A DNA stretch of 64,000 bases, taken from contig CACSIN010000026.1 in the NCBI GenBank assembly GCA_902705835.1, positions 128,154 through 192,153 on the forward strand, in the 5' to 3' direction. A program made the translations under genes and the position numbers. Below the pieces are notes generated by a model, which worked only from the letters and a program-made list of their open reading frames with translations, did not search any database and had not been told where the DNA came from. Below are positions 6,577 to 23,931 of the stretch, one piece after another. Numbering within the stretch: position 1 is the stretch's first letter; each line of letters opens with the position of its first letter. Source of the DNA: BD1-7 clade bacterium (GTDB lineage: Bacteria; Pseudomonadota; Gammaproteobacteria; Pseudomonadales; DT-91).

Positions 6577-6593
6577 AAATTCGCCATCTAACC

Positions 6594-7340: not shown

Positions 7341-8278
7341 GCGTGCTGAATCTCCAAGAGCTTTTGCAGCTTTGTGATGGCTTCAAGGTTTGTGGCTTGC
7401 ACTGCATCGACGGTATTCGAAGCATTATGCGAGCCCAATATGCAGTAGTTGTGGCTAATCAACTGCGAGCTGACTGGTAGAGGCTCTGTTTCGAATACAT
7501 CTAGAGCGGCACTGTGTATCTTGCCGGTTTTAAGGCCCTCGAGGAGGGCGCTTTCATCGATGAGAGGCCCGCGTGCGACATTCACGATTCGTACGCCGTT
7601 TTTGCACTGTGCAATTTCTGAATGAGAAAGCATGTGGCGGGTTTTATCGGTTAGCGCGCATGTGAAAATTAAGAAATCCAGCGATTCGATGTTTTCAGGC
7701 CAATTGCGCTGTTTTACACAATCCAGATTTGACGGTATTTCTTTAATAAAGGGGTCGTAGGTATAAACATCCATATCCGATGCAAGCAGGCGTTTTGCGG
7801 TGTTTTTGCCAATATCACCAAAGCCGACGACACCGACTTTTTTACCGGCAATGGAAATCCCTGTAGGTTTTACCCAGTTGCCTGAACGCACGTTTCTATC
7901 GATGAAGAAGGTGTTTCGTGCTAAACCAATGATATATCCGACGGCGATATCGGCGACTTCTTTACCAAACATATTGGGTGTGTAATCGAATTCGATGCCG
8001 AGCTCTTCGCAGGCCGCTCGATCGACGTTATCTGTACCAACGCCCCATTTAACGCAGGCTTTGAGTTGTGTGTTTTTGCCATAAGTGAGCACGTCGCGTG
8101 TTGCAGGATCATCGCCAATAATCCACCCACCGACATCCGTCAAATAACGTTTCAATTCTGTTTCGCTGAGTGTTTGAGACACTTCGGGGGTAACAGCCTC
8201 AAACCCCATTTTTTCAAAAATTGGGAGAAAGTGTTCTTTCTGCTGCAACATGGGAGGGCACGTCACTAGTACCTTCAT
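7337..8278 (-). CDS. D-isomer-specific 2-hydroxyacid dehydrogenase
   Basis: With the ATG at 8278 (313 residues), which overlaps the upstream stop by ATGA, the protein has the expected length. It shows the NAD site VGFGDIG, and the catalytic set Arg (NVARGPL, residue 236), Glu (DVFETEP) and His284 (GSHNAS). Relatives include phosphoglycerate and glyoxylate/hydroxypyruvate reductases. In a glycan operon it may supply or consume a 2-hydroxy/2-oxo acid used as a sugar precursor or substituent such as lactate or glycerate. That is inference from place only. A longer start at 8329 would overlap the previous gene by 55 bp. Confidence 0.9.
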   Translation of the reverse strand: MKVLVTCPPMLQQKEHFLPIFEKMGFEAVTPEVSQTLSETELKRYLTDVGGWIIGDDPATRDVLTYGKNTQLKACVKWGVGTDNVDRAACEELGIEFDYTPNMFGKEVADIAVGYIIGLARNTFFIDRNVRSGNWVKPTGISIAGKKVGVVGFGDIGKNTAKRLLASDMDVYTYDPFIKEIPSNLDCVKQRNWPENIESLDFLIFTCALTDKTRHMLSHSEIAQCKNGVRIVNVARGPLIDESALLEGLKTGKIHSAALDVFETEPLPVSSQLISHNYCILGSHNASNTVDAVQATNLEAITKLQKLLEIQHA

Positions 8279-8955
8279 ACATTTACCTCTAAGGAATCTG
8301 CTTGCGCGATGATTGCTGCCAGATCCCAATCTTGTGGTTCATCAATATCGACAGACTCGATAGCGCTTGTCGCGTGCATCATTGGATTTTTGCCGATTCG
8401 CGCCTTTGTTGTTTGAAATGCCTGTTTGGTAAAAATGTACAAACAGGAGTTTTCTTCGAACAAGGGAGCGAGATCTTGTGTGGGTATCAGATTATTAAGA
8501 TCGTGGTTAACGGGCGTTGCTTGAGCGTCGTAGAGCCGCGTTTGCAGTTTATTGACGGTAAACAAGCTATCTTTATCGGGTGAAGATTTCAGCGTATTGA
8601 GGGCAGTGTTGATGGTACTAACAGACAAAAATGGATTGGTAGTATGAGTCATGATATAGAGATCGGCATCGGTATGCGCGAGGTCGTTTTCGATAACACG
8701 ATTCATGCTTACCTCGTCGCCACATATTGATTTTTCGCGTTGGCGAACGATGAGTTTGTCAGATTTCGGCAAGCCTTCTCGACGGAGTTCTTCAATGGCG
8801 TCGGTGTTAATCACGACTTCGTCTATTTCAGGCATTGAGAGGAGTTTGTCGAGCATCCAGCGAAACAGAGGTTTGTTGCCGAGTTTTCGAAAATTCTTGC
8901 CTTTAACTCGTGTGCTGTTCGCCTTCAATGGCATTAACGCTATAACTTTTGTCAT
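8275..8955 (-). CDS. CMP-sugar synthetase-like cytidylyltransferase (NeuA/PtmB family)
   Basis: This 226-residue protein resembles acylneuraminate cytidylyltransferases. The N-terminal loop LMPLKANSTRVKGKN corresponds to the family's nucleotide-binding PARGGSKGxxxKN loop, and the end holds DIDEPQDW, like the family's D-x-P-x-D metal site. Family members join CMP to sialic, legionaminic or KDO-type acids. The start at 8955 has a good ribosome site (AGGAAG) and lies 53 bp inside the upstream GT2, an unusually long overlap. The Gly-rich loop is altered (KANSTR for the usual RGGSKG), so the substrate may be unusual. No nonulosonate synthase is in view. Confidence 0.85.
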   Translation of the reverse strand: MTKVIALMPLKANSTRVKGKNFRKLGNKPLFRWMLDKLLSMPEIDEVVINTDAIEELRREGLPKSDKLIVRQREKSICGDEVSMNRVIENDLAHTDADLYIMTHTTNPFLSVSTINTALNTLKSSPDKDSLFTVNKLQTRLYDAQATPVNHDLNNLIPTQDLAPLFEENSCLYIFTKQAFQTTKARIGKNPMMHATSAIESVDIDEPQDWDLAAIIAQADSLEVNV

Positions 8956-9865
8956 TACTTCCTGCGCTCTTATTGTTAATCGGACGGCTTGGATAAAAGT
9001 ATTTCTTTTTGCTCTCTTTTGAGATTGCGCGTATCAAGTGGTTACCTCTATACGAGCCCCAAAATTGATGGAGTCTAAACGCAAATATACCGCTGGTTTC
9101 GCGAAGCAGTTTCCGTTGCTGAGTTGCTGCGATTAGGTCACTCGTAACGGATGATAGAAAGCACCAGACAAAGTCACGGTGGGTCATATGGATTTCTGGA
9201 TGAATGTGGCGAAGAGCGATTGCCTCACGCTCATAACGGCGGCGGATTTGTTTCCAGCCTTCATTGTGAATGTGGTAAACCGGCGCATCTGCGCAGTAGC
9301 CAATTTTTTCGCCCGCTTCAAACAGGCGTTTGGCCGTGTGCATATCTTCAAGGCCGGTTAGATCTTCGTCGAAATGCGCACCTTCCCAGTTTGATCGGCG
9401 AATAGCGGCGTTGGCGTTGTTACAGAAAAACCCTGCTTGTGGTATCGCTGATTCGTTGGGGAAGTACTTTAAGAACACGCGGGATTCACTGAATTTTGTC
9501 GTGTCTCTACCGATTTGTTTTCCGTAGCTATAGCAGACATCGCTGTTTTTTATCGGTGTACACAGGGTGTTAATCCATTGGTCGTTCACAGGGACACAGT
9601 GACCACTGATAAAAACGAGAATATCGCCACGCGCTTGTTCACAGCCTATGTTCAGGCTGCGACCGAAGGAAAACTCATCTTTGGTGATATAAACCAGTTC
9701 TGCGCCATTTTCTCTCGCGATGTGGAGAGTTTGGTCTGTGGAGCCAGAGTCGACGACCACCGTTTCAATATCGAAGACGGACTTGTCTTGCTGATGGATT
9801 TTGTCGAATAACTCTCCAAGGTATTTTTCTTCATTCAATGTTCGGATTATGATGCTGACAAGCAT
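8903..9865 (-). CDS. GT2-family glycosyltransferase
   Basis: A 320-residue GT-A protein: LVSIIIRTLNEEKYL at the start, VVVDSGSTDQT (36-46), and a GLEDMHTAKR motif near residue 170, which fits the ED acceptor-site motif of many GT2 enzymes. Where most GT2 proteins have a DxD, this one reads SGHC (87-90), as in a subgroup of GT2 proteins with LSAHCxP-type motifs. The ATG at 9865 lies 19 bp inside the metallo-hydrolase gene, and its own 3' end overlaps the cytidylyltransferase by 53 bp. It belongs to the coupled glycan operon; the sugar is unknown. Confidence 0.87.
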   Translation of the reverse strand: MLVSIIIRTLNEEKYLGELFDKIHQQDKSVFDIETVVVDSGSTDQTLHIARENGAELVYITKDEFSFGRSLNIGCEQARGDILVFISGHCVPVNDQWINTLCTPIKNSDVCYSYGKQIGRDTTKFSESRVFLKYFPNESAIPQAGFFCNNANAAIRRSNWEGAHFDEDLTGLEDMHTAKRLFEAGEKIGYCADAPVYHIHNEGWKQIRRRYEREAIALRHIHPEIHMTHRDFVWCFLSSVTSDLIAATQQRKLLRETSGIFAFRLHQFWGSYRGNHLIRAISKESKKKYFYPSRPINNKSAGSNDKSYSVNAIEGEQHTS

Positions 9866-10665
9866 GTTTGGCTTCCTGCCTTTTGCGTATCAAGGTGAAT
9901 AGATTGTCCCGCTTCGATTACCGACAGTTCGAAAGACGGAGAGATCATGCGATAGAGAAGCGAAATTTCTTCGGGGTATACGCAGTTCGCGTCAAACATA
10001 TCCCAATGTGTTGGTATTAGGCGATCAATGCCAACGGCGTCGCATAGATAAAATGCTTCGCGTACGCTCATATTTCCCAGTATGCCGGAGGCATCACGCA
10101 TGAAGTTGCATTCATTGACCGGGATGAGCCCGATATCAATGGGGGCATGTGCTTTCAGATGATCGATGAGCGCCTGACAGAGACTGGTGTCACCCGCATG
10201 ATAGATTTTTCTACCCGCGACATTGAATAGGTAGCCGACCGTTGTCCAGAGCCCTTCAGCATTTTCACGGATGATTGGGTGTGCTGACGGCAAGATCGAC
10301 ACGTCAATATCGCCGAATAGGAAAAAGTTACGGGTAAGCTTTTTTAAATTCAAATTTTGATTTTGTGGAAATTTCTCTAGCCTGTTAATCACACTCGGTG
10401 GGCCGAATATCGGGACGTTCTCATTGAGGCTTGCGATTAAATGCAAGGTTTCAGGGTCGCAATGATCGAGGTGATTATGAGTTATAAAGACTGCATCGAC
10501 GGCGGTTGCCGTACTACTAATCGGAGGGATTGGAACTCGTCTGACTAAATCCTCTGATTCGGTTTCTGCGACGGCATTGCTTAGGTAGGGATCAACCATG
10601 ACGCGGCACTCAGGTGTGGTTATCACACAGCCGACTTGACCGAGAAATTGAATCTCTATAGGCAT
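9847..10665 (-). CDS. Metallo-beta-lactamase-fold hydrolase, UlaG-like
   Basis: The first gene of the eight-gene operon. This 272-residue protein has the zinc motif THNHLDHCD (62-70) and a second metal ligand in YHAGDTSLC, matching the UlaG / NAPE-PLD-like branch of the fold (GQVGCVI start and MVDPYLS near 23-29). Known relatives hydrolyse lactones or phosphodiesters. A member in a glycan operon is uncommon. It could open a sugar lactone or release a lipid or phosphate group from an intermediate. The start has AGGA 7 bp upstream and is clear. Confidence 0.85.
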   Translation of the reverse strand: MPIEIQFLGQVGCVITTPECRVMVDPYLSNAVAETESEDLVRRVPIPPISSTATAVDAVFITHNHLDHCDPETLHLIASLNENVPIFGPPSVINRLEKFPQNQNLNLKKLTRNFFLFGDIDVSILPSAHPIIRENAEGLWTTVGYLFNVAGRKIYHAGDTSLCQALIDHLKAHAPIDIGLIPVNECNFMRDASGILGNMSVREAFYLCDAVGIDRLIPTHWDMFDANCVYPEEISLLYRMISPSFELSVIEAGQSIHLDTQKAGSQTCLSAS

Positions 10666-10847
10666 GGTTACGTCCTATGCATAATCGTTGTTATTTTTCT
10701 ATCCGATTTATTTGCGGGTACGTTTTCTTCGCGTTTTCGAACCTTTTTGAAGGTAGTGCATAATCAAGAATGTGCTAGTTTTAAACCGCATGGCGCCAAC
10801 GCGAGCGTTCAATTCTGTGAGTGAGTTTTATTTTTCTAGGGATGTCG
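10666..10847. promoter_or_regulatory. Divergent control region between the glycan operon and the GT4 gene
   Basis: About 180 bp separate the minus-strand operon head from the plus-strand GT4. The region is AT-rich and should hold both promoters. I found no convincing -35/-10 pair or operator. Confidence 0.4.
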
Positions 10848-11954
10848 ATGGATCGGAAGATGTTACGTATTGGTGTCGATGCTCGGCCGCTTGCCGGGCC
10901 TGCCACAGGAATCTCACGTTACGTATCAGAACTTTTAAAAAGGTTGGTTCAGGCTAGCTCAAATGAGGTTTGTTGGTATCTCTATTCGGACGCGCCAATC
11001 GACTTTGATTGTGGCAAAGCATCCATTGTTATCCGTCATTTTTCGTCTAATCGATCTGGACGATTTTCGAATTTTTTCAGATATCAATATCATTTTCCAC
11101 GTTGGATTAGAAAAGACTCTCTTGATGTTTTTTGGGGTACTCGTCACCATCTGCCGTTACTTTTCCCATCTTCTGTAAGAAGTGTTTTGACGATTCATGA
11201 TCTCGTTTGGCGGCAGCTGCCAGCTTCGATGACTCGATTGGGGTTGTTGCAAGAAAGCATGTGTTTTCCCTCGTCAGTGAATAAAGCCGACAGTCTCGTC
11301 TGCGTGTCGGAGAATACAGCCAACGATCTTTTATCACTGAAGCCAGATACCGCAACTCCTCATGTCGTTTGTCCGGGGGTATCGACCAGCTTTTTTAGTG
11401 TGCAATCCCCAGCGAATGATCAACGGTATTTTTTGTGTACGGCGACACTTGAACCTAGAAAAAACTTGCTGCGGCTTTTGGAGGCATTCGCTTCTACGCG
11501 GCGCAGGGGGTGTGATTGGCGATTAGTTATTGTTGGTATGGAAGGGTGGGGCGATACTCATTATTCTCAAGCTACATCACGTTTAAACATTGAGTCATTT
11601 GTCGATTTTATGGGATTCGTTGATGATGCTGAATTATGTCGGTTATATGCTGGCGCATCAGCATTTGTGTTTCCGTCGCTCTACGAAGGGTTTGGTTTGC
11701 CCATCATCGAGGCAATGGCGGCAGGGGTGCCCGTGATTGCTTCGAATGTGGGATCAATGCCAGAGGTAGTTGGCCGCGCAGGGTACCTCGTTAACCCTTA
11801 TGACGTGAGTGACATTGCCGATGCCATGCTTAAGCTTGCCCGCGATGAAGCTCTACAACGTGAGTTGAAAAGTGCCGGACTCGTGCGAGCTAAGCAATTT
11901 TCATGGGATCATAGCGCGGCTGCGCTTCAGCGAATTTTGTTGACTGGCGAGTAA
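10848..11954 (+). CDS. GT4-family glycosyltransferase
   Basis: A group-1 glycosyltransferase of 368 residues from the ATG at 10848, chosen because AGGG sits 6 bp upstream; a GTG at 10821 and ATGs at 10842 and 10860 are alternatives. It opens with [19 protein letters not shown], has TLEPRKNL in mid-protein, and the C-terminal E-x7-E site [20 protein letters not shown]. The opening motif and overall form resemble mannosyl/rhamnosyl transferases of LPS and capsule. It is divergent from the glycan operon and convergent with the ABC exporter, and probably builds the same polymer. Confidence 0.92.
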
Positions 11955-11981
11955 TGCATTTGAATGGTTCAGGTAAGTAGT

Positions 11982-12731
11982 TCAGGCAAACTCTTTAGAT
12001 GCTAGCGCTCCAGTTGCTTTTGCCTGACTTTCATAGCGTTCTAAAATCTCTTTAGTTGCACCCGAATCCACAATTATTCCGTGCTCTATCCAAATCACCT
12101 TATTGCAAAACTTTTCAATGTCCTTAACGTTGTGAGAGACCATTATGACGGTAGTATCAGATGCAAACGTCTTTTCCATCGCGCTGCGACATTTTGCCCT
12201 GAATTGAGTATCGCCGACTGAAAGTACTTCGTCGATCATCAAGATTTCGGGTTTGAGGTAGAGGGAAACAGCAAAGCCGAGTCGGGCTCGCATTCCGGAT
12301 GAGTAAGTATGAATAGGTTGGTCAATAAAAGTTTCCAGTTCCGAAAAACGAATGATGTCGGGCATCAAGGCATCCATCTGCTGCTTGCACAACCCCATTA
12401 GCATGCCATTCATGGTTGCATTAGTGCGACCACTGAGGTTGGTGTCAAACCCTAGCTGTAGCGAGAGTAGTGCGGTCTTTTGCGTTTTAACCTGGATGTT
12501 GCCTGCGTCGGGTTTGAGTATGCCGGCGATAAGGCGAAGCAATGTACTTTTGCCCGCACCGTTCCTGCCGATGATTGCTACAGAATCCCCCTTTTGAATA
12601 TCAAAACTTATATTATCCAGGGCAGTAAAGATTGTTTTGGGACGAAAAAATGCCAGCCCGCTTTTGTAGCTGTAGCGAAGGTTTTGCGCTTTAACAATAG
12701 GGGGGCGAAGAGCTCTGTTTTCAGCATTCAT
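11982..12731 (-). CDS. Polysaccharide ABC exporter, ATP-binding subunit (KpsT/Wzt type)
   Basis: This 249-residue ATPase has Walker A GRNGAGKST (55-63), the signature YSSGM (143-147) followed by RARLGFA, Walker B ILMIDE (163-168) with the SVGD D-loop, and the switch His in MVSHN. It lacks the extra C-terminal carbohydrate-binding domain of some Wzt proteins, so it is the short KpsT/TagH form. It powers export of a finished lipid-linked glycan across the inner membrane. Its ATG overlaps the permease stop by ATGA, and the two form one transporter. Confidence 0.93.
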   Translation of the reverse strand: MNAENRALRPPIVKAQNLRYSYKSGLAFFRPKTIFTALDNISFDIQKGDSVAIIGRNGAGKSTLLRLIAGILKPDAGNIQVKTQKTALLSLQLGFDTNLSGRTNATMNGMLMGLCKQQMDALMPDIIRFSELETFIDQPIHTYSSGMRARLGFAVSLYLKPEILMIDEVLSVGDTQFRAKCRSAMEKTFASDTTVIMVSHNVKDIEKFCNKVIWIEHGIIVDSGATKEILERYESQAKATGALASKEFA

Positions 12732-13543
12732 CGTTGCAGGAGTACCCGAGGTATTTGAGCGTCATAACGTCGCATTAACAGTGTAGTCAGCGCAATTGCA
12801 GATATCGATAAAGCGGCAGTGATCATCAGGCTGAATAGGTCTGGTGCACTGTTAGTGAGAAAGATCTTCCTGAAGCTGTCAATGACGACCCACATCGGAT
12901 TTATGCCAAACCATTGCTGATAGTGCGGAGAAAGTGTTTCCACAGCATAGAATATGCCAGATAGAAACATCATGAGCCTTAACAGGTTAGGCAGAAGAAC
13001 CTGAAAATCCGGAACATATGTTGTGATAATTGCAGCGATATAGGAGCACGCGCTGATCAGCAATAGTTGTACTAGAAGTACGATAGGTAGGTAAAAATAT
13101 GCAACGCTGACCCCTTCAGTGGAAAATTGCATCAGCAACAGAAGCAATACGAAAGTAACCAGAAACTTGATCGTATTAATGAGAATGGTAACGCTCGGCA
13201 GGATAAGCTTCGGAAATCTGACCTGACAAACAAGATCTTTGTTTGCGTTAATCGACGCTGCAGATTGACTGACGGCATTTGCAAACCATTGCCAGGTGAC
13301 TAATCCGATGAGCAGAAATGCAACGTAGTTTTCTGTTCCGCGATTGAGAAGAAGCTTAAATACGACATAGTAGGTCGCCATGGATAGTAGCGGTTCAATG
13401 ACCCACCACATGAAGCTCAGATAAGTTTTAGTCGATTCTGATTTTAATGTGGCAATGGCCTTGAAGACGATAAGCTGGCGGTGTTCAGGTTGGAATAAAA
13501 GCAAGGCTGGATTCTCGATACCGATTCTTATTATGACGCCCAA
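12728..13543 (-). CDS. Polysaccharide ABC exporter, permease (KpsM/Wzm type)
   Basis: An ABC-2 permease of about 271 residues with six hydrophobic segments. It carries the family opening, in which a short cytosolic helix (about 25-45) leads into FMWWVIEPLLSM, and a late region with FLSGIFYAVE and NPMWVVIDSFR. The track start at 13543 is a TTG (TTGGGC), with no ATG nearby in frame; the true start may be this TTG or a CTG 6 bp upstream. It pairs with the ATPase at 12731. No outer-membrane exporter (Wza/KpsD) is in the window. Confidence 0.9.
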   Translation of the reverse strand: MGVIIRIGIENPALLLFQPEHRQLIVFKAIATLKSESTKTYLSFMWWVIEPLLSMATYYVVFKLLLNRGTENYVAFLLIGLVTWQWFANAVSQSAASINANKDLVCQVRFPKLILPSVTILINTIKFLVTFVLLLLLMQFSTEGVSVAYFYLPIVLLVQLLLISACSYIAAIITTYVPDFQVLLPNLLRLMMFLSGIFYAVETLSPHYQQWFGINPMWVVIDSFRKIFLTNSAPDLFSLMITAALSISAIALTTLLMRRYDAQIPRVLLQR

Positions 13544-13757
13544 ATGCAGAGGGAGGGCGCTGTTCCATTCTATCCGTCAATCTGGATTTCTAATCCCGTG
13601 TTTATGCAGTGATACTTGTGGGCTCTATGTGCCAATTGAGCCAACATATTCTGTCACAATCGGCCGCGCTGCATGCTTTGAAGCTAGCATATGTCGTGCT
13701 TTCTTCCAGTACAGTTCATCGAGTTTTGTTGAGTATCGATATTTAGGAGAGGTTAGC
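13544..13757. other. Intergenic stretch upstream of the exporter and the micro-ORF
   Basis: Together with the micro-ORF that follows, 340 bp separate the exporter and the orphan gene at 13884. No convincing promoter pair was seen. An ORF crossing it in frame with the micro-ORF lacks coding character and overlaps the permease antisense. Confidence 0.35.
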
Positions 13758-13823
13758 ATGGTTGATATGAATCAAGTTGATGCGGGTTTTCCTTCATGTA
13801 ATGAAACGGTTGATATGTATTGA
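13758..13823 (+). CDS. Possible 21-residue micro-peptide
   Basis: An ATG at 13758 has a strong ribosome site, AGGAGAGG, 6 bp upstream, and the frame runs 21 codons to a TGA. The peptide is acidic and holds one Cys; its C-terminus is ETVDMY. It lies 60 bp before an orphan 143-residue gene on the same strand. It could be a leader peptide, a small functional peptide or a chance ORF. It does not match PqqA or another precursor I know. The ribosome site is the only positive evidence. Confidence 0.35.
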   Translation: MVDMNQVDAGFPSCNETVDMY

Positions 13824-13883
13824 GGCTCTATAAGGTATCCGCGCTTGATTGGCAGGTGTGATTGCAGTGCAGGGAGCCTATGT

Positions 13884-14315
13884 ATGCGTATGAATTTAGG
13901 TTTAGAGGAAGTGCTAGGGATTGCGTCCGGATTCAGTTTTAGTGGGCTAATTGTTCAGTTGGTATATGTGACTGACGAAAACGGGAATAAACCGGCCGCG
14001 ATACTCAATGATTGGTCTTTGGGTTACGTTAGTGGTTTTGTTGACGCATCGATTCAGGCAGCGTCCATCCCAGACAATAGCTTCGTGGCTCAACGCTTGC
14101 TCTTGCGTGCTTTCAGTGTGTTATTTCCCAGTGTAAATAGTCAGTCGTTGTATCGGCGGCTTGTGCGATTGCAGGATGCGGGTAGTCGCGAGATCTATGC
14201 AGGAATGACGCGAGGAGGCGCAGATGTCAGTGCTTGGCTGACGCGCTCCATTGTACCTATGTCTTGGGTGGATTATATGTGCGCGCCCGATGTTTGTGAG
14301 TCGGCAATTGCTTAA
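13884..14315 (+). CDS. Orphan hypothetical protein, 143 residues
   Basis: I do not recognise this protein. The ATG at 13884 has AGGGAG 7 bp upstream and is preferred over the ATG-less extension to 13845. The product is soluble and mixed helical: a central ILNDWSLGYVSGFVDASIQ segment, a long Leu/Arg-rich stretch (FVAQRLLLRAF ... YRRLVRLQD) and a C-terminal tail with two Cys residues. The gene is convergent with the 77-residue gene, with 14 bp between stops, and lies near the degenerate decarboxylase-like gene. A shared function is only a guess. Confidence 0.6.
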   Translation: MRMNLGLEEVLGIASGFSFSGLIVQLVYVTDENGNKPAAILNDWSLGYVSGFVDASIQAASIPDNSFVAQRLLLRAFSVLFPSVNSQSLYRRLVRLQDAGSREIYAGMTRGGADVSAWLTRSIVPMSWVDYMCAPDVCESAIA

Positions 14316-14329
14316 AAAGTTGGCGACGT

Positions 14330-14563
14330 TTATTTCGCGTTTGAATCTACTGCAAGTGTCATGTAATTCTGAACTTCGTGGTCAATATGCGGCATGATGG
14401 CTTCGCCATGGCACTGAAATGCGGCTATGCACTGCACCAGCGAATGGTATTCGTGGCTCGCTTGGCCAATGTCGTGCGTGTTGTAACCTGGCATTTTGTA
14501 GCCGAGAGTTTCGTTTGCTGCTGATGCGGCTTCTGTCATTTGCTCTAAGTCTGTGGCTTCCAT
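14330..14563 (-). CDS. Small His/Cys-containing hypothetical protein, 77 residues
   Basis: The start has a strong ribosome site (GAGGAAAG, 3-4 bp from the ATG), so a real gene is likely. The product is acidic, helical and soluble. Its middle has a run of possible metal ligands: HDIGQASHEYH, then C-x5-C-H, then HIDH. I know no family. It is divergent from the PSD-like gene across 149 bp. It could be a metal-binding or regulatory small protein. Confidence 0.6.
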   Translation of the reverse strand: MEATDLEQMTEAASAANETLGYKMPGYNTHDIGQASHEYHSLVQCIAAFQCHGEAIMPHIDHEVQNYMTLAVDSNAK

Positions 14564-14665
14564 CGTCTTTCCTCTATATCCCAGTCATATAGTATTCTCC
14601 TAAGTTTAGCTCACATCCATCGCTTTGATCCGGAAACAAATACTTCATTTCTATCGAAGCCGCGC

Positions 14666-14678
14666 GTCAAAGTTTGAC
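14666..14678. promoter_or_regulatory. 13-bp palindrome in the divergent promoter region
   Basis: GTCAAA-G-TTTGAC is a perfect palindrome midway between the 77-residue gene and the PSD-like gene, 35 bp before the latter's ATG. It could be a regulator site controlling both. It also contains a TTGAC, so overlap with a -35 box is possible. Confidence 0.35.
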
Positions 14679-14712
14679 TATAGTGAGGCAGTAATACCAA
14701 GGAGTCAGGTTA

Positions 14713-16128
14713 ATGAATAAGGATATAAATGTTCTGACTGTCGAGTTGGCTGGCCAATCGTTGATGTCTGATGTGCCATTCAATATGCCATTCGATACGT
14801 CTCTTGATGCCACTCACAATATACATATTGATAGGCTCTCTCAACGACTCACTGCTGAGGTTTCCCAACGTTGGGCTGCATCCGTTGAGCTCACTACAGG
14901 TTCTGTATCGGTGGCCGCAGATTGGTATGGTCGCTGGTTGTCGCGCAGCAAAGCTGCGTTTATCCATGCCGATAAACCTCTACATCGAAGTGTTAGGGCA
15001 TTGCAATTTCTACTAGAAAAAGATCTTCACCTTGCCGAGCTGTTAGACAATATGCTGCGGCAAGGGAGTGCTTTGCAGCGTTCAGAGATGGAAGTCGAAC
15101 ACGCGGTTGTCGAAACCACAGACGAATGGCTACTTTGCTTGCATCACGCCGTAACCTCTGCGCCGAAGTTTGAATTGGAACGCGGTTTTGGCCTTGATCC
15201 ATTGTACGGCGTATTGGTGTTCATGCTGGCTACCGATGCAGCCGACGAATTTTTTAGTCATGAAGCAGTCAATCGCTGTTTTCTTCAGATGATGAATACC
15301 TGGTATGCATTTCTGAGTTCGCCTGCCTCGTTATCTACGCTGAATACCGGGCCTAACGGGTGGTTATGCCATGAATCCTGGGTGAGGAATCGGCTCGATC
15401 AATATGTAACAAGCAGAATGCTTACCGATGACCCCGTGCATTGGGGATTTTCGACGTATTTGTCCTTCCAGAATCGGCGTGTCATTCAAATCTGTCGCCC
15501 GCTGGATGGATATAGCGACACCCCTGAAGTGAATAGCATCGTCGTTTCTCCTTGTGATGGTCGTTTGTCGGAGGTTCTGCATTCTGTTAACAGAAAAACT
15601 CATGTGATGCTGCGTGATCAAAGCGCTTTATTGTCGACATTGGTGCCTGATGATGCTGAGTTTCACTCGGAGGGCGCTGATTTTTTCCGAATTAATCTTG
15701 GGGTGTTTGATCTGCATCGCTGGTTTGCGCCAGTTTCTGGAACGATCGTGAGTGTCGAAAAGATACCCGCTAACCGATGTGTTGCGCCGCTCTTGCAAAT
15801 AATGGCGTTAGATCCGGCTAAATCCAGCGTAAATACGATGGTGAGAATTCTAATAGAAACTAAGCATGCTGCAGGTAATAAGAAAGTCCTCGTGTTGGCT
15901 CTCGGCAGCGCATCATCAAGCTCGGTTTGTTCGTATGCAAAGGCAGGTCAGTGTGTCGAAAAGGGCGATGAAATAGGGTGGTTTAATGATGCCGGTGGAG
16001 TGATATGCCTTATATTTGAAGCGAATCTCATCGAGCGCTTTATTCACTCTTCTCCGCCTCAACAACTTTCTGTTTGCCAACAAACGCACCTTCGGGCGAA
16101 GGCCCAGATCGCTGTTGTCGATATTTGA
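14713..16128 (+). CDS. Phosphatidylserine decarboxylase-family protein, probable pseudoenzyme
   Basis: A 471-residue protein of the PSD superfamily with the extra N-terminal domain seen in PsiD-like decarboxylases (hallmark NTWYAFLSSPASL at 195-207, then GW). The C-terminal half follows PSD: SPCDG (279-283) keeps the catalytic Asp, and DLHRWFAP (333-340) keeps the first His but has Phe338 where E. coli PSD has His147. The self-cleaving LGST motif reads DAGG (426-429), so the Ser that becomes the pyruvoyl group is gone. It cannot mature in the known way. The ATG has AAGGAG 8 bp upstream. The gene is intact, so a non-catalytic role, such as lipid binding, is plausible. Confidence 0.82.
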   Translation: MNKDINVLTVELAGQSLMSDVPFNMPFDTSLDATHNIHIDRLSQRLTAEVSQRWAASVELTTGSVSVAADWYGRWLSRSKAAFIHADKPLHRSVRALQFLLEKDLHLAELLDNMLRQGSALQRSEMEVEHAVVETTDEWLLCLHHAVTSAPKFELERGFGLDPLYGVLVFMLATDAADEFFSHEAVNRCFLQMMNTWYAFLSSPASLSTLNTGPNGWLCHESWVRNRLDQYVTSRMLTDDPVHWGFSTYLSFQNRRVIQICRPLDGYSDTPEVNSIVVSPCDGRLSEVLHSVNRKTHVMLRDQSALLSTLVPDDAEFHSEGADFFRINLGVFDLHRWFAPVSGTIVSVEKIPANRCVAPLLQIMALDPAKSSVNTMVRILIETKHAAGNKKVLVLALGSASSSSVCSYAKAGQCVEKGDEIGWFNDAGGVICLIFEANLIERFIHSSPPQQLSVCQQTHLRAKAQIAVVDI

Positions 16129-16179
16129 TAGTCTGGTTTGCTCTAGTCGACTTTGCTAGCGGGGCCCAGGTGCAGCCCG

Positions 16180-17367
16180 TTAGCCGGATATTGCTCCTTC
16201 TTCGGTAAGTTTTCGAATCGCTTCTTCGGAATACCCTAAAGCTGACAACGTCGCGTGATTCTGCGTGCCTAGTGCGGTGCCCGCAATTAACGACGCTTGG
16301 CGGGTGTTGCCAAAGCGTATAGGACACGCGATCTGTTTGACAGTGTCGCCACTAGAAAGCTGAGCATCACAAATCATTTGTCGTTCAATAAAATGCGGAT
16401 GCGATGTTGCTTCTGCGAGATTCAGCACGGGAGAAACACAGGCGTCGGCTTGGCTGAACTTATCCTGCCAGTCGGCAAATGTTCGTTTTTTGATTTCGTT
16501 GGTGATATCGCTTTTTAACGTGTGCTGGGTATCGGTTGAGTAGTCAAAAAATCGTTCTAACCACTCAGGTTTGTCTATAACGCTACAGAACGCTTTACAG
16601 AATTTGGGTTCGAGACCACCGACTGCAAGCCAGCGGCCATCGGATGTTTCGTAGTAATCATAGAAAATCCCGCCATTCAGCTGTTCTGTTCCTAACCCTG
16701 GAACTTGTTCGTCCGCGAGATGACTCGCAGCGAAAATAGTATTCATTGAAAGTACCGCGTCCGTCATGCTGATATCGACATGTTGCCCGGTGCCTGACGT
16801 CTGGCGTTGGATAACAGCTGCCAAAATACCCATTACTGCATGATGGCTACCACCGGCGACATCGGCAATCTGTGTGCCGTTGAGTACTGGGCCTGTATTT
16901 TCTCGGCCACTGTAGCTGGCCAAACCGCCGAGAGATAAGTAGTTAATATCATGCCCGCCGGCTTGCGATAGCGGGCCTGATTGTCCGAAGCCCGTGATTG
17001 AACAATAGATAAGTTCAGGGTGTGCCTTGCTTAGCGTTGAATAATCCAGCCCCAGCCTAGCCATTACACCCGGGCGATATTGCTCAATAATAATGTCGTA
17101 CTCATCGAGTAATTTGATCACGATCGATGCGGCTTCAGGATGTTTCAAATTTAACGCCATCGATTTTTTATTACGGTTTATCGAGGCTTGCGCGGCGCTA
17201 ACTCCCTCTTCGATATAGGGGGGCATTAGTCTGAGGAAATCCGGCCGATCGGGGGCTTCGATACGTAAAACCTCAGCACCCATATCGGCTAAAAGCATAG
17301 TTGCATATGGGCCGGGAAGAAGCGGGGTGAAATCAAGGATTTTTAGTCCCTTTAATGGTGCAGCCAT
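16180..17367 (-). CDS. CaiB/BaiF family protein, alpha-methylacyl-CoA racemase-like
   Basis: This 395-residue protein starts GLKILDFTPLLPGPYATMLLADMGAEV, the family III CoA-transferase opening. The GGHDINYLSLGG region (138-149) matches the racemase (AMACR) active-site Asp segment, and QHVDISMTDAVL follows. AMACR flips the 2-methyl centre of branched acyl-CoAs so that beta-oxidation can go on. The next genes upstream on this strand are an acyl-CoA dehydrogenase, a FadJ-like enzyme and a thiolase, which fits. A 244-bp gap separates it from them, so it may have its own promoter. A CoA transferase with another acid is the alternative. Confidence 0.87.
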   Translation of the reverse strand: MAAPLKGLKILDFTPLLPGPYATMLLADMGAEVLRIEAPDRPDFLRLMPPYIEEGVSAAQASINRNKKSMALNLKHPEAASIVIKLLDEYDIIIEQYRPGVMARLGLDYSTLSKAHPELIYCSITGFGQSGPLSQAGGHDINYLSLGGLASYSGRENTGPVLNGTQIADVAGGSHHAVMGILAAVIQRQTSGTGQHVDISMTDAVLSMNTIFAASHLADEQVPGLGTEQLNGGIFYDYYETSDGRWLAVGGLEPKFCKAFCSVIDKPEWLERFFDYSTDTQHTLKSDITNEIKKRTFADWQDKFSQADACVSPVLNLAEATSHPHFIERQMICDAQLSSGDTVKQIACPIRFGNTRQASLIAGTALGTQNHATLSALGYSEEAIRKLTEEGAISG

Positions 17368-17611
17368 GGTAATTCCATATGTGATGTTATGCGTTTCAGT
17401 GTCTAAAAATCATATCTGAATTTTAATGATAACGGAGGTGTTGGTGAAAGGAATTACATCGATAGCGCTTAAGTTAAAGCGATTTAACGCTGGCACTGCG
17501 GTAATAGCGCCGGTTTGCTATCGGTTATGTGGGACGGCGCACTGGTAGTGGAAGTGAGCATGATCGCGAGAGTGTCGCCGTGTGTTATTTACGTGCTGGC
17601 GCTTAATCGGA

Positions 17612-18754
17612 TTAGCGAAGCACTGCGCGGCTGATAATGAGTTTCATCACTTCATTGGTGCCCGCATAGATTTTTTGCACCCGTGCGTCGGCGTACGCTC
17701 GGGCAACCGGGTATTCCCACATATAGCCCCAACCACCGTGAAGTTGGAGGCATTCGTCGATCACCTGACACTGGAGATCTGTCGACATCAATTTCGATTT
17801 CGCGGCCGTTGGTACGTCTAACTGCCCGTCGATGTGGAGTTCCAAACATTTGTCAATAAACACTCGGGCAACGGTCAAATCGGTGTCCATCTCGGCGATT
17901 TTGAACTGCGTATTTTGCATCGCAGCAATGGGCTTTCCGAAGGCTTTTCGGTCTTTCACATATTCGATAGTTTGGCGCAAAATTGACTCTGCCGAAGCGA
18001 TAGCGATGATTGCTACCGAAAGACGTTCTTGCGGTAATTCCTGCATCAAATAAATAAAACCCTGGCCCTCTTCGCCGAGCAGGTTTTCTTTCGGAACACG
18101 AACGTTGTCAAAAAACAATTCGGATGTGTCCTGTGCTTTCATGCCGATTTTTTCCAAGTTATTGCCTTTAGAAAAACCGAGAGAACCTGCTTCAACTAGC
18201 AATAAACTGATCCCTTTGGCGCCTTCTGCTGCATCGGTTTTGGCCACGACAATAACAAGATCTGCGTGTTGGCCGTTTGTGATGAAAGTCTTAGAACCAT
18301 TGAGAACGTAGTGGTCCCCATCGAGTATTGCTGTTGTTTTTATGCCTTGAAGGTCCGAGCCGGCACCAGGTTCCGTCATCGCAATTGCGGTAACAACTTC
18401 GCCACTGATACACTTCGGCAGGTACTTTTTCTTTTGCTCCTCATCGCCGTAGTTTAGTAGGTAGGGCACAGCGATATCGGAGTGCAGCCCCCAGCCAATA
18501 CCTGTTAGCCCCATGCTGGATATTTCTTCGTCAATGATCGCGTTGTAGCGGAAATCAACACCGACTCCGCCATAGGCTTCCGGTACGGTAGGGCATAGAA
18601 ACCCCTGTTCGCCGGCTTTGTTCCAGAGGCTTCTATCGACTTGGCCGTCTTTTTCCCATTGGGCGTGGTACGGTACGGCTTCGGCTTCAAGGAATTTTCG
18701 AACGGAATCACGGAACATTTCGAGGTCAGAATCGTAAATAGTTCGCTGGATCAT
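17612..18754 (-). CDS. Acyl-CoA dehydrogenase, LCAD/IVD-type active site
   Basis: A 380-residue FAD flavoprotein of the usual length and order, with AMTEPGAGSDLQGI and FITNGQ for flavin contacts, and DRKAFGKP and LQLHGGWGY later. At the site where MCAD-type enzymes carry the catalytic Glu (IYEGT) it reads IYAGT (about 364-368). The Glu of LPQERL is in the place used by long-chain and isovaleryl-CoA dehydrogenases. It should introduce the 2,3 double bond into a long or branched acyl-CoA. It begins 1 bp after the FadJ-like stop, so the two are cotranscribed. Confidence 0.92.
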   Translation of the reverse strand: MIQRTIYDSDLEMFRDSVRKFLEAEAVPYHAQWEKDGQVDRSLWNKAGEQGFLCPTVPEAYGGVGVDFRYNAIIDEEISSMGLTGIGWGLHSDIAVPYLLNYGDEEQKKKYLPKCISGEVVTAIAMTEPGAGSDLQGIKTTAILDGDHYVLNGSKTFITNGQHADLVIVVAKTDAAEGAKGISLLLVEAGSLGFSKGNNLEKIGMKAQDTSELFFDNVRVPKENLLGEEGQGFIYLMQELPQERLSVAIIAIASAESILRQTIEYVKDRKAFGKPIAAMQNTQFKIAEMDTDLTVARVFIDKCLELHIDGQLDVPTAAKSKLMSTDLQCQVIDECLQLHGGWGYMWEYPVARAYADARVQKIYAGTNEVMKLIISRAVLR

Positions 18755-18755
18755 C

Positions 18756-20903
18756 TTAGGGCTCCTTACTGAAGATATGAGTTGCGCTGCCAGAAATTAG
18801 CGAATCAGGCAGGGAGAACCTATCGCCATAACGTTCTGCCAGGTAATTGGCTCGTTGGTTAAATGCTTCAATGCCATATTGGCGGATAAACTGAAGTGCG
18901 CCGCCTGTCCAAGGCGGATATCCAATCCCGAAGATCGAACCAATGTTGGCGTCGCGCGTTGATGTCAGTACTCCCTCGTCATAACAATGAGCGGTTTCTA
19001 AGGCCATGATAAATAGGAGGCGATCTTTGATATCGTCAAGCGGTGTTGGTGTTGTTTCTGCCTTGGTGATTGACGTTAGACCTGGCCAAAGGTATTTTTT
19101 ATCTGATGCTGGGTAGTTGTAGAAACCCGCACCAGCGGCCTTTCCTGCACGCGATTTAGACAGCATTGCGTCGATAACAAGATCACCAGGGTGTGGGTTA
19201 TAGGTATTGCCCTCAGCCTCGAGATCGCTGATTTCCTGTTGTTTGATCTTGTTGAGAAGTGTTAGCGATACTTCATCAACAACCGCGAGTGGCCCCACCG
19301 GGAATCCCGCTAAGAATGCTGCGTTCTCAATGGTTGCTGCTGGGATGCCTTCGCCCAGCATGGCTGCACCTTCGAGGCAAAACATCCCGAAAACCCGCGA
19401 AGTAAAAAAGCCACGACTGTCGTTTACAACGATGGGTGTTTTGCCAATTTGCAGCACAAAATCGTAAGCAATCGCGAGCGTTTCATCGCTAGTGTTTTGA
19501 CCACAAATGATTTCAACCAGCGGCATTTTGTCTGCCGGTGAAAAGAAATGTAAACCGATAAATTTTTCCGGATTCAACGATGCCTGACTGAGCCCGGATA
19601 TCGGTAATGTCGATGTATTAGATGAAAAAATACCATGATCGCTCAGGTGGGGCTCTGCTTCTTGGGTGACTTGAGCTTTGAGCTGTCTGTCTTCGAATAC
19701 AGCTTCGATGATCAAGTCGCATTCTGCGAGATCACCAGCGTTATCGGTTGGGTGTATCGCGGAGAGCACAGTTTTTGCTTGTTCAGCTGTTAGGCGCCCG
19801 TTATCGATACGCTTTTGAAGCCGTTTCTCGCTATAGGCTTTGCCGTTTTTTGCGCTCTCGAGTGTCACGTCTTTCAAAACGACATCGATACCTATATCGG
19901 CACAGGCATACGCGATACCTGAACCCATCATACCTGCGCCAAGAATACCGATTTTTTGACGCGGCGATGATGCGGGAAGGTCAGGCCTTGATGCACCTGC
20001 TTTAATTTCATTGAGCTGGTACCAGAAAGTGTGAATCATGTTTTTCGCAACCTGATGGGTTGTCAGATTGACGAAGTAACGGGATTCGATGCGTAGCGCT
20101 GTATCAAAATCGACCTGAGCACCTTCGACCATGGCGCACAGAATATACTCGGGTGCAGGAAGGGTCCCTTTGGTTTGATTGCGCATCATCGCTGGTGCAA
20201 TGGGCAATAATTGCGCCATGGCGGGGTGATCCGGCTTTCCACCTGGAATACGGTATCCTTTTTCATCCCAAGGTTGGTGGCTTTCAGGGTTGTCTTTAAT
20301 CCAGCGAACGGCGTTTTTAAAGAGTGTTTCTTCGTCTGCCACGATATCGTGGATGATGCCCAATGTTTGCCCCTTGGCTGGGTCGAATTTTTTACCTTCC
20401 GTAAGGTAAGGCATGGCCTGCTGAAGACCGAGCAGGCGCACCATGCGAACGATACCGCCGCCGCCGGGAAGAAGCCCGAGGGTGACTTCGGGTAATCCCA
20501 GCGTCACATTATCATCGAGAGAAATCCGATGGTGGCACGATAGTGCGAGTTCTAGACCACCACCCAGTGCTGCGCCGTTGATACATGCAACAACGGGTTT
20601 TCCTCCTGTCTCAAGGCGGCGCATCGCATGTTTGAAAGACTCGACGGAATCGTAAAACATACCGGCGCTGTTGGTATCAACCTGATAGAGCATGTCGAGG
20701 TCACCACCTGCCATAAAGGTGGCTTTTGCCGACCGAATGATGACGCCGATGTGATCGGTCTGCTCGACTTCCTGGCAAACGTCGATGAGATCAGAGATAA
20801 AATCGGTGTTGAGTAAGTTTGCACTGCCTCTGGGGTTATCCAGAATCAGGTGAATAATATTGTCCGCGTCTTTTTCAATATGGATGGATCGATTGGTCAT
20901 CAT
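18756..20903 (-). CDS. fadJ: FadJ-like multifunctional enoyl-CoA hydratase / 3-hydroxyacyl-CoA dehydrogenase
   Basis: This 715-residue fusion has an N-terminal crotonase domain (about 1-200: oxyanion motif INGAALGGGLELALSCHH, then GLPEVTLGLLPGGGG) and a 3-hydroxyacyl-CoA dehydrogenase domain from about residue 315 (GILGAGMMGSGIAYA, SSNTSTLPIS, GLHFFSPADKM). It performs steps two and three of beta-oxidation. A GGAGG site lies 5 bp before the ATG at 20903. It sits between thiolase and acyl-CoA dehydrogenase in one operon. It resembles both FadB and FadJ; the lack of an adjacent fadA of FadBA type favours the FadJ name, but the symbol is tentative. Confidence 0.92.
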   Translation of the reverse strand: MMTNRSIHIEKDADNIIHLILDNPRGSANLLNTDFISDLIDVCQEVEQTDHIGVIIRSAKATFMAGGDLDMLYQVDTNSAGMFYDSVESFKHAMRRLETGGKPVVACINGAALGGGLELALSCHHRISLDDNVTLGLPEVTLGLLPGGGGIVRMVRLLGLQQAMPYLTEGKKFDPAKGQTLGIIHDIVADEETLFKNAVRWIKDNPESHQPWDEKGYRIPGGKPDHPAMAQLLPIAPAMMRNQTKGTLPAPEYILCAMVEGAQVDFDTALRIESRYFVNLTTHQVAKNMIHTFWYQLNEIKAGASRPDLPASSPRQKIGILGAGMMGSGIAYACADIGIDVVLKDVTLESAKNGKAYSEKRLQKRIDNGRLTAEQAKTVLSAIHPTDNAGDLAECDLIIEAVFEDRQLKAQVTQEAEPHLSDHGIFSSNTSTLPISGLSQASLNPEKFIGLHFFSPADKMPLVEIICGQNTSDETLAIAYDFVLQIGKTPIVVNDSRGFFTSRVFGMFCLEGAAMLGEGIPAATIENAAFLAGFPVGPLAVVDEVSLTLLNKIKQQEISDLEAEGNTYNPHPGDLVIDAMLSKSRAGKAAGAGFYNYPASDKKYLWPGLTSITKAETTPTPLDDIKDRLLFIMALETAHCYDEGVLTSTRDANIGSIFGIGYPPWTGGALQFIRQYGIEAFNQRANYLAERYGDRFSLPDSLISGSATHIFSKEP

Positions 20904-20924
20904 ATGAGCCTCCGTTTCAGCGAT

Positions 20925-22133
20925 TTAGACGCGTTCTATGATAGTGGCGATACCCATGCCGCCGCCGACACATAATGTGATCAGGCCACGTTTAAGGCTG
21001 CGCGCTTCGAGTTCGTCGACCATGGTGCCTAGCAACATTGCCCCTGTTGCCCCCAATGGATGTCCCATTGCGATTGCACCGCCATTGACGTTGACCTTTT
21101 CATGGGGAACCCCCATTTCTCGCATAAACCGAATAACAACGGCGGCAAATGCCTCATTGACCTCAAACAGATCAATATCGTCAACCGTTAACCCTGCGGC
21201 TTTCAGTGCTTTACGGGAAGCAGGCGCAGGCCCAGTGAGCATGATGGTGGGATCGGTTCCGACGACTGCTGTTGCTACGACACGGGCTCTGGGTATCAGG
21301 TTCAATGACTTTGCTGCTGCTTCAGAGCCGATAAGCACAGCGGCAGCACCGTCGACAATACCGGACGAATTACCTGCAGTGTGGATATGTTGTATGCGCT
21401 CAACGTGCGGATATTTTGTTCGAGCAACGCCGTCGAAGCCCATTTCACCAACGAGGGCGAAAGCTGCTGAAAGCTTGCCGAGGCTATCTAGGCTGGCGTC
21501 TGGCCGAATCAGTTCATCCTTGTCTAGAATCATTAGTCCGTTTCGATCAACGACTTTCACGATGCTGTTTTCGAATGCTCCGCGTTGCCAAGCGGCTGCC
21601 GCGCGTTTGTGGGATTCTACTGCGAAAGCATCAACGTCATGTTTGCTGAGGTCGTCCAGCGTGGCAATTAAATCGGCACCCACACCTTGCGGCATAAAAC
21701 CCGTTTGTAGGTTGGTTTCCGGATCCATTGCCCATGCGCCGCCATCAGAGCCCATGGCAACTCTCGACATTGATTCAACGCCGCCTGCGACGACGAGTTG
21801 CTCCCAGCCCGAACGCACTTTCATCGCGGCAAGGTTACAAGCTTCAAGCCCTGATGCGCAGAAGCGGTTAAGGGTAACGCCAGCAACGTTTTCACTCCAC
21901 CCAGCAGCGAGTGCTGCCGTTTTAGCGATATCCGCGCCTTGATCACCGATTGCTGAAACACAGCCCATAACAAGGTCATCAATGGCTTCTGTATCCAGAT
22001 TGTTGCGCTGTTCGAGAGATTTTAAAAGGTGGACAAGCAGGCTGACGGGTTTGACTTCATGCAGTTGGCCGGAACTCTTGCCCTTGCCTCGCGGTGTTCT
22101 GATAGCATCCAGAATATAGGCTTGCTCTGTCAT
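20925..22133 (-). CDS. Acetyl-CoA C-acyltransferase (3-ketoacyl-CoA thiolase)
   Basis: A 402-residue thiolase with the nucleophile Cys92 ([10 protein letters not shown]), the NEAFA motif near residue 330, the His of [15 protein letters not shown] and the second catalytic Cys of CVGGGMGIA. It cleaves 3-ketoacyl-CoA to acetyl-CoA (or propionyl-CoA from methyl-branched chains) and a shortened acyl-CoA. The start has GGAGG close upstream. It lies 21 bp before the FadJ-like gene, so the pair probably works as a degradation unit. The start of the next upstream gene, ParA-like, is 46 bp away on the same strand. Confidence 0.94.
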
Positions 22134-22179
22134 TCATGCCTCCATGGGAATATCGATGGGTGTTTGTCAATCCATTGAT

Positions 22180-22980
22180 CTATAACGTGGTGTTTTGACC
22201 GCATAGCTGATCAAAGGTTGTTGTATTGTTGCCTGCGGTTTCGTTGGGCTGTTTTTGGTTTTCGGATGTCCGGGATTCCGTAGAACGGAGTGCGGACGAA
22301 TCTGTTGGGGAAGGCAAGAGGGAGGATGTGGTATCGAGGGCGTGCAGCCAATCTAGTAGCGGCAGCAATCCTGGTTTTTCATGGGCAAATCGAAACTTTG
22401 TTAATTCACATACGCCAAGCCCGGATGCGGCAGCCTGTATGTAGTTCTGACTGTCTCTTAACGTGCCGACAAATGGGATCTCAAGTCGATTCAGGAATAT
22501 TTCGAGCGTTTGGTAAATTCGAGTGTTTTTTCGCACCCGGTTGGCAACGACGGCAATATTGGTGGAAGAGCGCGGTAATCGGCCGATGAGGAACAGGTCG
22601 CGCAGAAAGTGTGCAGCGGCATGAATATCAATCGCCGATGGTAAAACCGGGATTAAAATCGCATCGGCTTCCTTTAACGGGGGCTGAAACCGCATCAGAT
22701 CAATCCCGGCGGGAGTGTCTGTTAGCAGAACTTGTGTGCCAGCTTCGGGCTTCAGGTAAAAGCTACGCGTCATGCCATAAGGCTCTTTGAAAGCTTCAAT
22801 CGCTTGTACCGGATTAACCTGGGGTGGACGCTTTGACGCCCAGAATGAAGACGAACCTTGAGAATCGTGATCGAGAATGGCTGTTTTACATCCTTGGGAT
22901 GCATACCAAGCGGCGAGGTTTGTTGTCAGAGTCGATTTTCCGACACCGCCTTTGCTATTCACTATGGCAATTTTGAACAT
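22180..22980 (-). CDS. ParA-like ATPase without ParB partner
   Basis: This 266-residue protein has the deviant Walker A KGGVGKST (10-17), the A' region LDHDSQGSSSFW and a TDTPAGID Walker B-type motif. Family members position DNA or protein cargo. No ParB-like gene or parS-like repeat is near. It heads the beta-oxidation cluster, 46 bp before the thiolase, and may be cotranscribed with it. The C-terminal ~45 residues are Ser/Thr/Asn-rich and probably disordered. Orphan ParA proteins sometimes place membrane complexes or granules; which cargo here is unknown. Confidence 0.87.
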   Translation of the reverse strand: MFKIAIVNSKGGVGKSTLTTNLAAWYASQGCKTAILDHDSQGSSSFWASKRPPQVNPVQAIEAFKEPYGMTRSFYLKPEAGTQVLLTDTPAGIDLMRFQPPLKEADAILIPVLPSAIDIHAAAHFLRDLFLIGRLPRSSTNIAVVANRVRKNTRIYQTLEIFLNRLEIPFVGTLRDSQNYIQAAASGLGVCELTKFRFAHEKPGLLPLLDWLHALDTTSSLLPSPTDSSALRSTESRTSENQKQPNETAGNNTTTFDQLCGQNTTL

Positions 22981-23325
22981 GTCATATCCAAAAAATCGAG
23001 GGTCTGATGCCGGAGTGTAGACACTATCAACGGGGTTTGCCGGAATTTCCCAGGGTTCGACAACACGTTGTAAGGGGGACTATCGCCGCGGCCTGTTGAG
23101 TTGGTTCACTGTTAAATGTAGCGCGGTAGGGGCTTATTTAATTCTTGTGAACTGCTACCCACTTCTACCGTTCGTCGGGGAACGGCTTGTGGGTTTCGCG
23201 CGTCTCAACTCATGCAAGCCACATATTTTGAGCGGTTAACGATGGTTCAAGGTTGCTGGACTATAATACCCCTGAACGAATAATTAGTGTGGTGAGCATC
23301 GTTTTAACGCGTAAAGGATATCTTT
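22981..23325. other. Divergent intergenic region with hairpin and putative -10 element
   Basis: These 345 bp lie between the ParA-like gene and an orphan protein. They hold the double inverted repeat at 23157-23194 and a perfect TATAAT at 23262-23267, 59 bp before the orphan's ATG. No good -35 is spaced correctly. Confidence 0.4.
23157..23194. repeat. Two-tier inverted repeat
   Basis: Outer arms ACCCAC/GTGGGT and inner arms CCGTTC/GAACGG are nested around a 6-bp centre. An RNA copy would form a stem with an asymmetric internal loop. It has no T-run, so it is probably a regulatory or structured RNA element rather than a terminator. Confidence 0.4.
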
Positions 23326-23931
23326 ATGGAGCTTGCCGTTTTCAAAAACGCTGGATACCGCGTGGTATATGAATCTGACGATGTGTTGGTATATCGTCAT
23401 AGCAGTGGTTTTCAGAAAAATACCTTTGCTGCCCGCCAAGCGCTTTTAATTGCCGTCGCGTCCCGAACAGAAGGGTTTCGCTATGTGTTCCGTCGCAAAG
23501 CATCGGACCCGCGCATTGTGTCGCTTGGCAATCACGCTTACGCTAGTGAATTGCATCCTTCCTGGCTTAATAACATGACGGTGGCCTCAGCAGCCGATCT
23601 GAATGTGAAACCGAGCAAGGATTCAACTGAGCAATTAGCTGACGAGTATATCGACAACGCTTTTCTGTGGGGAATTGATCCGCAGGTATGGAGTTCACGA
23701 GAAGCCGGAGATTTTGTCGATTGCTTAACCGGTTCCGAAGATATCGTCCTAATTAAACCCGACAGAGATAAACATATCTGTGTGAGCGATGTCATGGAGT
23801 CGATTCGTAAAGATAATTATTACAATCGGATATCCTGTTTGTTTTTGAAAGGCCGCTCCCATTCATCGAGTATTTTCGCACCTGTGTTCAATAAGGTCGG
23901 AGCAGTTGTTCAACACTTCACACATCATTAA
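23326..23931 (+). CDS. Orphan hypothetical protein, 201 residues
   Basis: I do not recognise this protein. The ATG has AAAGGA 7-8 bp upstream and is clear. It is soluble with no signal peptide. The N-terminal third (YRVVYESDDVLVYRH) looks like a beta-rich domain; the C-terminal third (EDIVLIKPDRDKHICVSDVM) could be an alpha/beta unit. It stands alone with its own TATAAT-containing upstream region. A hairpin follows it, before the EamA gene. Confidence 0.6.
   Translation: MELAVFKNAGYRVVYESDDVLVYRHSSGFQKNTFAARQALLIAVASRTEGFRYVFRRKASDPRIVSLGNHAYASELHPSWLNNMTVASAADLNVKPSKDSTEQLADEYIDNAFLWGIDPQVWSSREAGDFVDCLTGSEDIVLIKPDRDKHICVSDVMESIRKDNYYNRISCLFLKGRSHSSSIFAPVFNKVGAVVQHFTHH

What the first reader, a model, noticed from the sequence alone, without database searches (positions are those of the whole stretch)
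14713..16128. PSD-superfamily protein lacking the pyruvoyl-forming Ser and a catalytic His
The protein has the PsiD-like N-terminal domain and most PSD core motifs, yet LGST reads DAGG (426-429) and the second His of the YHRxH motif is Phe338. By gapless alignment to E. coli PSD, Ser254 and His147 are gone while Asp282 and His335 remain. It cannot self-cleave or decarboxylate by the known mechanism. The frame is intact at 471 codons with a good ribosome site, which argues for selection on another role, such as lipid or amine binding.
Basis: partly seen in the sequence, partly recalled or inferred. Interest (0 to 1): 0.72.

Follow-up and report, generated by a model that had tools for sequence, protein, structure and literature searches.

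The report
Catalytically dead PsiD-like pyruvoyl decarboxylase relative
Two closely related marine bacteria keep an intact gene for a relative of amino-acid and phospholipid decarboxylases whose enzyme core has been dismantled, so the protein has probably been kept for some job other than the usual chemistry; what that job is remains unknown.

Summary
Window 14713-16128 (+) encodes an intact 471-aa protein with the PSDC (PF12588) and PS_Dcarbxylase (PF02666) domains. The residue that becomes the pyruvoyl cofactor is Gly429; it is Ser in 60 of 60 other homologues aligned. E. coli Ser254Ala never self-cleaves, so this protein almost certainly stays uncleaved and cannot use pyruvoyl chemistry. 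The main catalytic His (335) remains. The erosion is broader: 5 of 18 positions invariant across the sample are broken (F253Q, K301R, G322A, R376M, S429G), and 13 of 35 PSDC-invariant ones. One 96%-identical syntenic orthologue (BD1-7 clade SB11_3) shares all the lesions. Between the two copies dN/dS is 0.29, with no stops and only in-frame indels: constrained, but less than its neighbours. The genome has one ordinary Psd and no active PSDC, so a same-subfamily prozyme-like partner is absent. No wider Ser-less subfamily was found in about 1,750 genomes. It is a very divergent pseudoenzyme of unknown role, a new variant of a known kind.

The parts
14713..16128 (+). PSDC-family pseudo-decarboxylase, 471 aa
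14986..15378 (+). N-terminal PSDC domain (PF12588), residues 92-222
15526..16035 (+). PS_Dcarbxylase domain (PF02666), residues 272-441
15556..15558 (+). Asp282 (= E. coli Asp90; Glu in nearly all PSDC members), retained acidic
15715..15717 (+). His335 (= E. coli His144, main catalytic His), retained
15724..15726 (+). Phe338 (= E. coli His147), changed but variable in the family
15469..15471 (+). Gln253 in place of invariant Phe
15613..15615 (+). Arg301 in place of invariant Lys
15676..15678 (+). Ala322 in place of invariant Gly
15838..15840 (+). Met376 in place of invariant Arg
15988..15999 (+). DAGG (426-429) in place of xGGS; Gly429 replaces the pyruvoyl-forming Ser

Best explanation
A catalytically dead pseudoenzyme derived from a PSDC-type (PsiD-like) pyruvoyl decarboxylase. 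Shown by sequence: the pyruvoyl Ser and other superfamily-invariant core residues are gone, while the family signature and the frame are kept. Follows from E. coli mutagenesis: the chain is not cleaved and has no cofactor. Inferred: the intact single-chain fold is kept for a non-catalytic role, most likely binding a small amine, amino acid or lipid head group in the remodelled pocket, or binding another protein. A same-subfamily enzyme partner is unlikely because the genome has none.
For: Ser is invariant in 60/60 relatives and Gly here. Five of 18 superfamily-invariant positions are broken; in leave-one-out the worst intact relative breaks 2 of 20 and the divergent L014 breaks 1 of 19. Thirteen of 35 PSDC-invariant positions are broken. 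Very long branch (5.3 changes per column against a median end branch of 0.3). The orthologue shares the lesions at 96% identity in the same gene order. dN/dS 0.286, p = 9e-5 for dN<dS; neutral simulation expects 3.3 stops at this divergence, P(no stop) 0.04, and the observed N/S ratio was never reached in 5,000 runs. Indels are in-frame, 12 nt and 3 nt. E. coli S254A is uncleaved.
Against: Only two copies, from one genus, about 4.5% apart in DNA around the locus. dN/dS is higher than in the neighbours pooled (20:21 against 163:446 non-synonymous:synonymous, p = 0.004) and in the C-terminal domain alone not clearly below 1 (p = 0.06). No conserved operon partner. No usable structure model (pLDDT 29). 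No binding evidence.
Confidence: 0.72

Rival explanations
1. A decaying gene: the decarboxylase lost its function recently and the frame has not yet been broken.
For: Highest dN/dS of 15 compared genes, significantly above neighbours pooled; C-terminal domain dN/dS about 0.4 with p = 0.06; 2 of 5 genus genomes have it.
Against: Whole-gene dN/dS well below 1 (p = 9e-5); no stops where neutral drift expects 3.3; indels all in frame; the many core changes imply a long time since loss of catalysis without frame loss.
Confidence: 0.15
2. A prozyme-like regulator: the dead protein pairs with and activates a live decarboxylase, as trypanosome AdoMetDC prozyme does.
For: Direct precedent among pyruvoyl enzymes: prozyme also lacks processing and other active-site residues (PMC5201418).
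Against: No second PSDC gene in either genome; the only relative in the window's genome is the ordinary Psd, matched at E 0.02 by this protein. No adjacent decarboxylase gene.
Confidence: 0.06
3. An enzyme of a different, pyruvoyl-independent chemistry that uses His335, Asp282 and a remodelled pocket.
For: His335, Arg336 and Asp282 are retained although the Ser is lost; conserved positions such as Tyr305, Tyr334 and Arg376 changed while the frame stayed intact.
Against: No new conserved cluster of catalytic residues can be defined from two near-identical sequences; elevated dN/dS.
Confidence: 0.07

Closest known systems
Bacterial PSDC-family decarboxylases ('phosphatidylserine decarboxylase family protein', PF12588+PF02666), e.g. 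Burkholderia stagnalis WP_059880491.1
   Same: Same two-domain architecture, alignable over about 350 residues at 27-32% identity
   Different: Those keep GGST, Lys, Arg and Tyr at the core positions and mostly His at 338; this one has lost them
Fungal PsiD L-tryptophan decarboxylase (8X4Q, 8ZIA) and the PsiD-like protein 9JER
   Same: PSDC domain plus PSD core; 9JER also lacks the second His (YHCWNAP)
   Different: Their chains run up to the Gly-Gly(-Ser) of the cleavage site; here the Ser is Gly
Classical bacterial Psd (E. coli PSD; L002 in this genome)
   Same: PSD core, HR motif, catalytic His and Asp positions
   Different: No PSDC domain in Psd; Psd has LGST and YHRVH; very distant (E 0.02)
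Trypanosoma AdoMetDC prozyme
   Same: Dead, unprocessed relative of a pyruvoyl decarboxylase
   Different: A different decarboxylase family; prozyme has a live partner in the same cell, none of this subfamily here

Membership tests
PSDC / PsiD-like family (PF12588 + PF02666) | Both domains above the curated cut-off, in order | tested here: met
   82.2 and 78.3 bits against cut-offs 23.4 and 22
PSDC / PsiD-like family (PF12588 + PF02666) | Groups with PSDC rather than classical Psd in a tree | tested here: met
   Falls with the PSDC rows, support 95/92; exact place unsure because of a long branch
Functional pyruvoyl decarboxylase | Ser at the Gly-Ser cleavage site | tested here: not met
   Gly429; Ser in 60/60 others
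Functional pyruvoyl decarboxylase | Main catalytic His (E. coli His144) | tested here: met
   His335
Functional pyruvoyl decarboxylase | Other superfamily-invariant core residues (Phe253, Lys301, Gly322, Arg376) | tested here: not met
   Q, R, A and M here
Functional pyruvoyl decarboxylase | Self-cleavage into two chains with a pyruvoyl group | not testable with these tools
   Predicted absent from E. coli S254A
Prozyme-type regulatory pseudoenzyme | Live paralogue of the same subfamily in the same genome | tested here: not met
   Only an ordinary Psd in the genome
Prozyme-type regulatory pseudoenzyme | Physical complex that activates the partner | not testable with these tools
   No interaction data available

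The most novel reading that the evidence does not exclude
The first non-catalytic lineage within the PSD/PSDC decarboxylases: an orphan pseudoenzyme, with no live subfamily partner, that has become a ligand-binding or protein-binding module after dismantling its self-processing site.
Probability: 0.4. Interest if true: 0.6.

Novelty: new variant of a known kind. Interest (0 to 1): 0.42.

Why it matters
Among pyruvoyl enzymes, the pseudoenzyme found here in the literature (trypanosome prozyme) works by pairing with a live paralogue. An orphan in a bacterium without such a partner would suggest that this fold can be kept for binding alone. It also warns that automatic annotation as 'phosphatidylserine decarboxylase family protein' would assign this gene an activity it almost certainly cannot have.

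Tried and rejected
Viral collections and phage records hold no relative. PF12588 is rare outside Burkholderiaceae: 5/392 in the order, 2/369 in the class sample, 5/399 in the phylum sample, counting the window's own genome, and every other copy read at the site has the Ser. Sequencing error or misalignment rejected. An alternative cofactor residue next to the site was considered: residues 427-431 (AGGVI) hold no Ser, Thr or Cys, and Cys432 is common in intact relatives, so it is not a replacement. The upstream 156-aa ORF was considered as a partner; it has no family match and occurs in the same two genomes, so co-occurrence is uninformative. A first pass of the invariant-column count was contaminated by copies of the query itself and was redone. 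Papers on a PSD pseudoenzyme: none in the held library.

Full report
What is there. The ORF at 14713-16128 (+) has 471 codons, an ATG and a GGAG about 10 nt upstream. Its protein carries PF12588 PSDC (92-222) and PF02666 PS_Dcarbxylase (272-441), each far over its cut-off. The closest solved relatives are PsiD L-tryptophan decarboxylase (8X4Q, 8ZIA) and a PsiD-like protein (9JER), then E. coli PSD. So it belongs by descent to the PSDC group and not to the classical Psd group; the tree agrees (95/92), although the branch to this protein and its orthologue is extremely long (5.3 against a median end branch of 0.3) and its exact sister is unsure.

The missing residues. In 60 distinct homologues collected from genomes and plasmids, the position of Gly429 is Ser in all 60 and His335 is His in all 60. 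A profile-profile alignment made separately gives the same correspondence. In E. coli, Ser254Ala abolishes self-cleavage completely, His144 is the main activator of Ser254, and His147Ala or Asn still cleaves almost completely (PMC7952604). His335 corresponds to His144 and Phe338 to His147. In other PSDs the triad His has been assigned to the His147 position (Plasmodium knowlesi) or the His144 position (yeast), as that paper notes. In the sample, position 338 is His in 56, Asn in 3 and Trp in 1 of the intact relatives, and the solved 9JER protein has Asn there. No Ser, Thr or Cys lies at 427-431 to act instead.

Erosion is wider than reported. Of 18 columns invariant in all 60 relatives, classical Psd included, this protein breaks five: F253Q, K301R, G322A, R376M, S429G. 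In a leave-one-out control the worst intact relative breaks 2 of 20, and the divergent L014 breaks 1 of 19. Within 53 PSDC members it breaks 13 of 35. It keeps 13 of the 18, largely glycines, prolines and hydrophobic residues plus His335, Arg255 and Arg262. Intact PSDC proteins from different phyla are more alike (Burkholderia against Lactobacillus 38%) than this protein is to any of them (27% or less over the whole length).

Is it kept by selection? The gene has one orthologue, in BD1-7 clade isolate SB11_3 (Spongiibacteraceae), 96% identical in protein, in the same gene order. Both carry every lesion. dN is 0.0189, dS 0.0663, ratio 0.286; dN<dS with p = 9e-5. A neutral simulation at this dS expects 3.3 stop codons; none is present (P = 0.04), and the N/S ratio seen was never reached in 5,000 runs. 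The two indels are 12 and 3 nt. Against this, its ratio is the highest of the 15 genes compared and significantly above the neighbours pooled (p = 0.004), and the C-terminal domain alone is only marginally below neutrality (p = 0.06). The fair reading is real but relaxed constraint. Three of the five genus genomes searched lack it, though one of those is only 84% complete.

Surroundings. On the left is an O-antigen or polysaccharide block with Wzm/Wzt-like ABC genes on the minus strand (11982-13543; named from the sequence, not tested). Next come an unassigned 156-aa ORF (13845-14315, +) and a 77-aa ORF (14330-14563, -). On the right is a minus-strand fatty-acid or CoA block: CoA-transferase (PF02515), then an acyl-CoA dehydrogenase, FadB-like protein and thiolase named from the sequence (16180-22133). 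No decarboxylase, antiporter or amine gene was recognised next to it. This contrasts with intact PSDC genes on Enterobacter and Photobacterium plasmids, which lie directly beside a basic amino acid/polyamine antiporter and so plausibly make amines. The genome holds one ordinary Psd with an intact GST motif (L002) and no second PSDC.

How it most likely works. Shown: the residue identities and their conservation. From established work: no Ser means no cleavage and no pyruvoyl. Inferred: the protein is a single uncleaved chain whose retained fold binds a ligand or a protein. I cannot choose between these. A prozyme-like role with a same-subfamily enzyme is disfavoured because no such enzyme is in the genome; with Psd it remains possible but unlikely. 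Decay in progress is the main rival.

Limits. The structure prediction failed for lack of permitted relatives (pLDDT 29). The genome searches used 1,750 genome slots, some genomes more than once, with heavy sampling of this order, the Burkholderiaceae and one other gammaproteobacterial order. The paper search covers open-licence papers only, so 'not reported' is weak.

Noticed in passing
window 13845-14315 (+): 156-aa ORF with no Pfam or NCBIfam match, 98% identical and strongly constrained (dN/dS 0.038) in the orthologous region; found only in the same two genomes among 38 searched.
   Followed up: partly
window 14330-14563 (-): 77-aa ORF conserved in the orthologous contig, no Pfam match.
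   Followed up: partly
window 7337-23931 against L015: Synonymous divergence varies about tenfold between adjacent genes (0.04 in the FadB-like gene, 0.41 in the acyl-CoA dehydrogenase), suggesting recombination mosaicism.
   Followed up: no
L026:4190-6990 and L028:1795-4657: Intact PSDC genes on Enterobacter and Photobacterium damselae plasmids lie directly downstream of a basic amino acid/polyamine antiporter: a likely PLP-independent decarboxylase-antiporter pair.
   Followed up: partly
L014 (FHRWWVP) and L024/L028/L029 (YHRWNSP): The second His of the motif is naturally Trp or Asn in PSDC proteins with an intact GGS site, so it is not required family-wide.
   Followed up: yes
window 21-1091 (+) and 5815-6618 (-): Two MptE-like (PF01973) matches in or near a polysaccharide gene block; the first is below the Pfam cut-off.
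   Followed up: no
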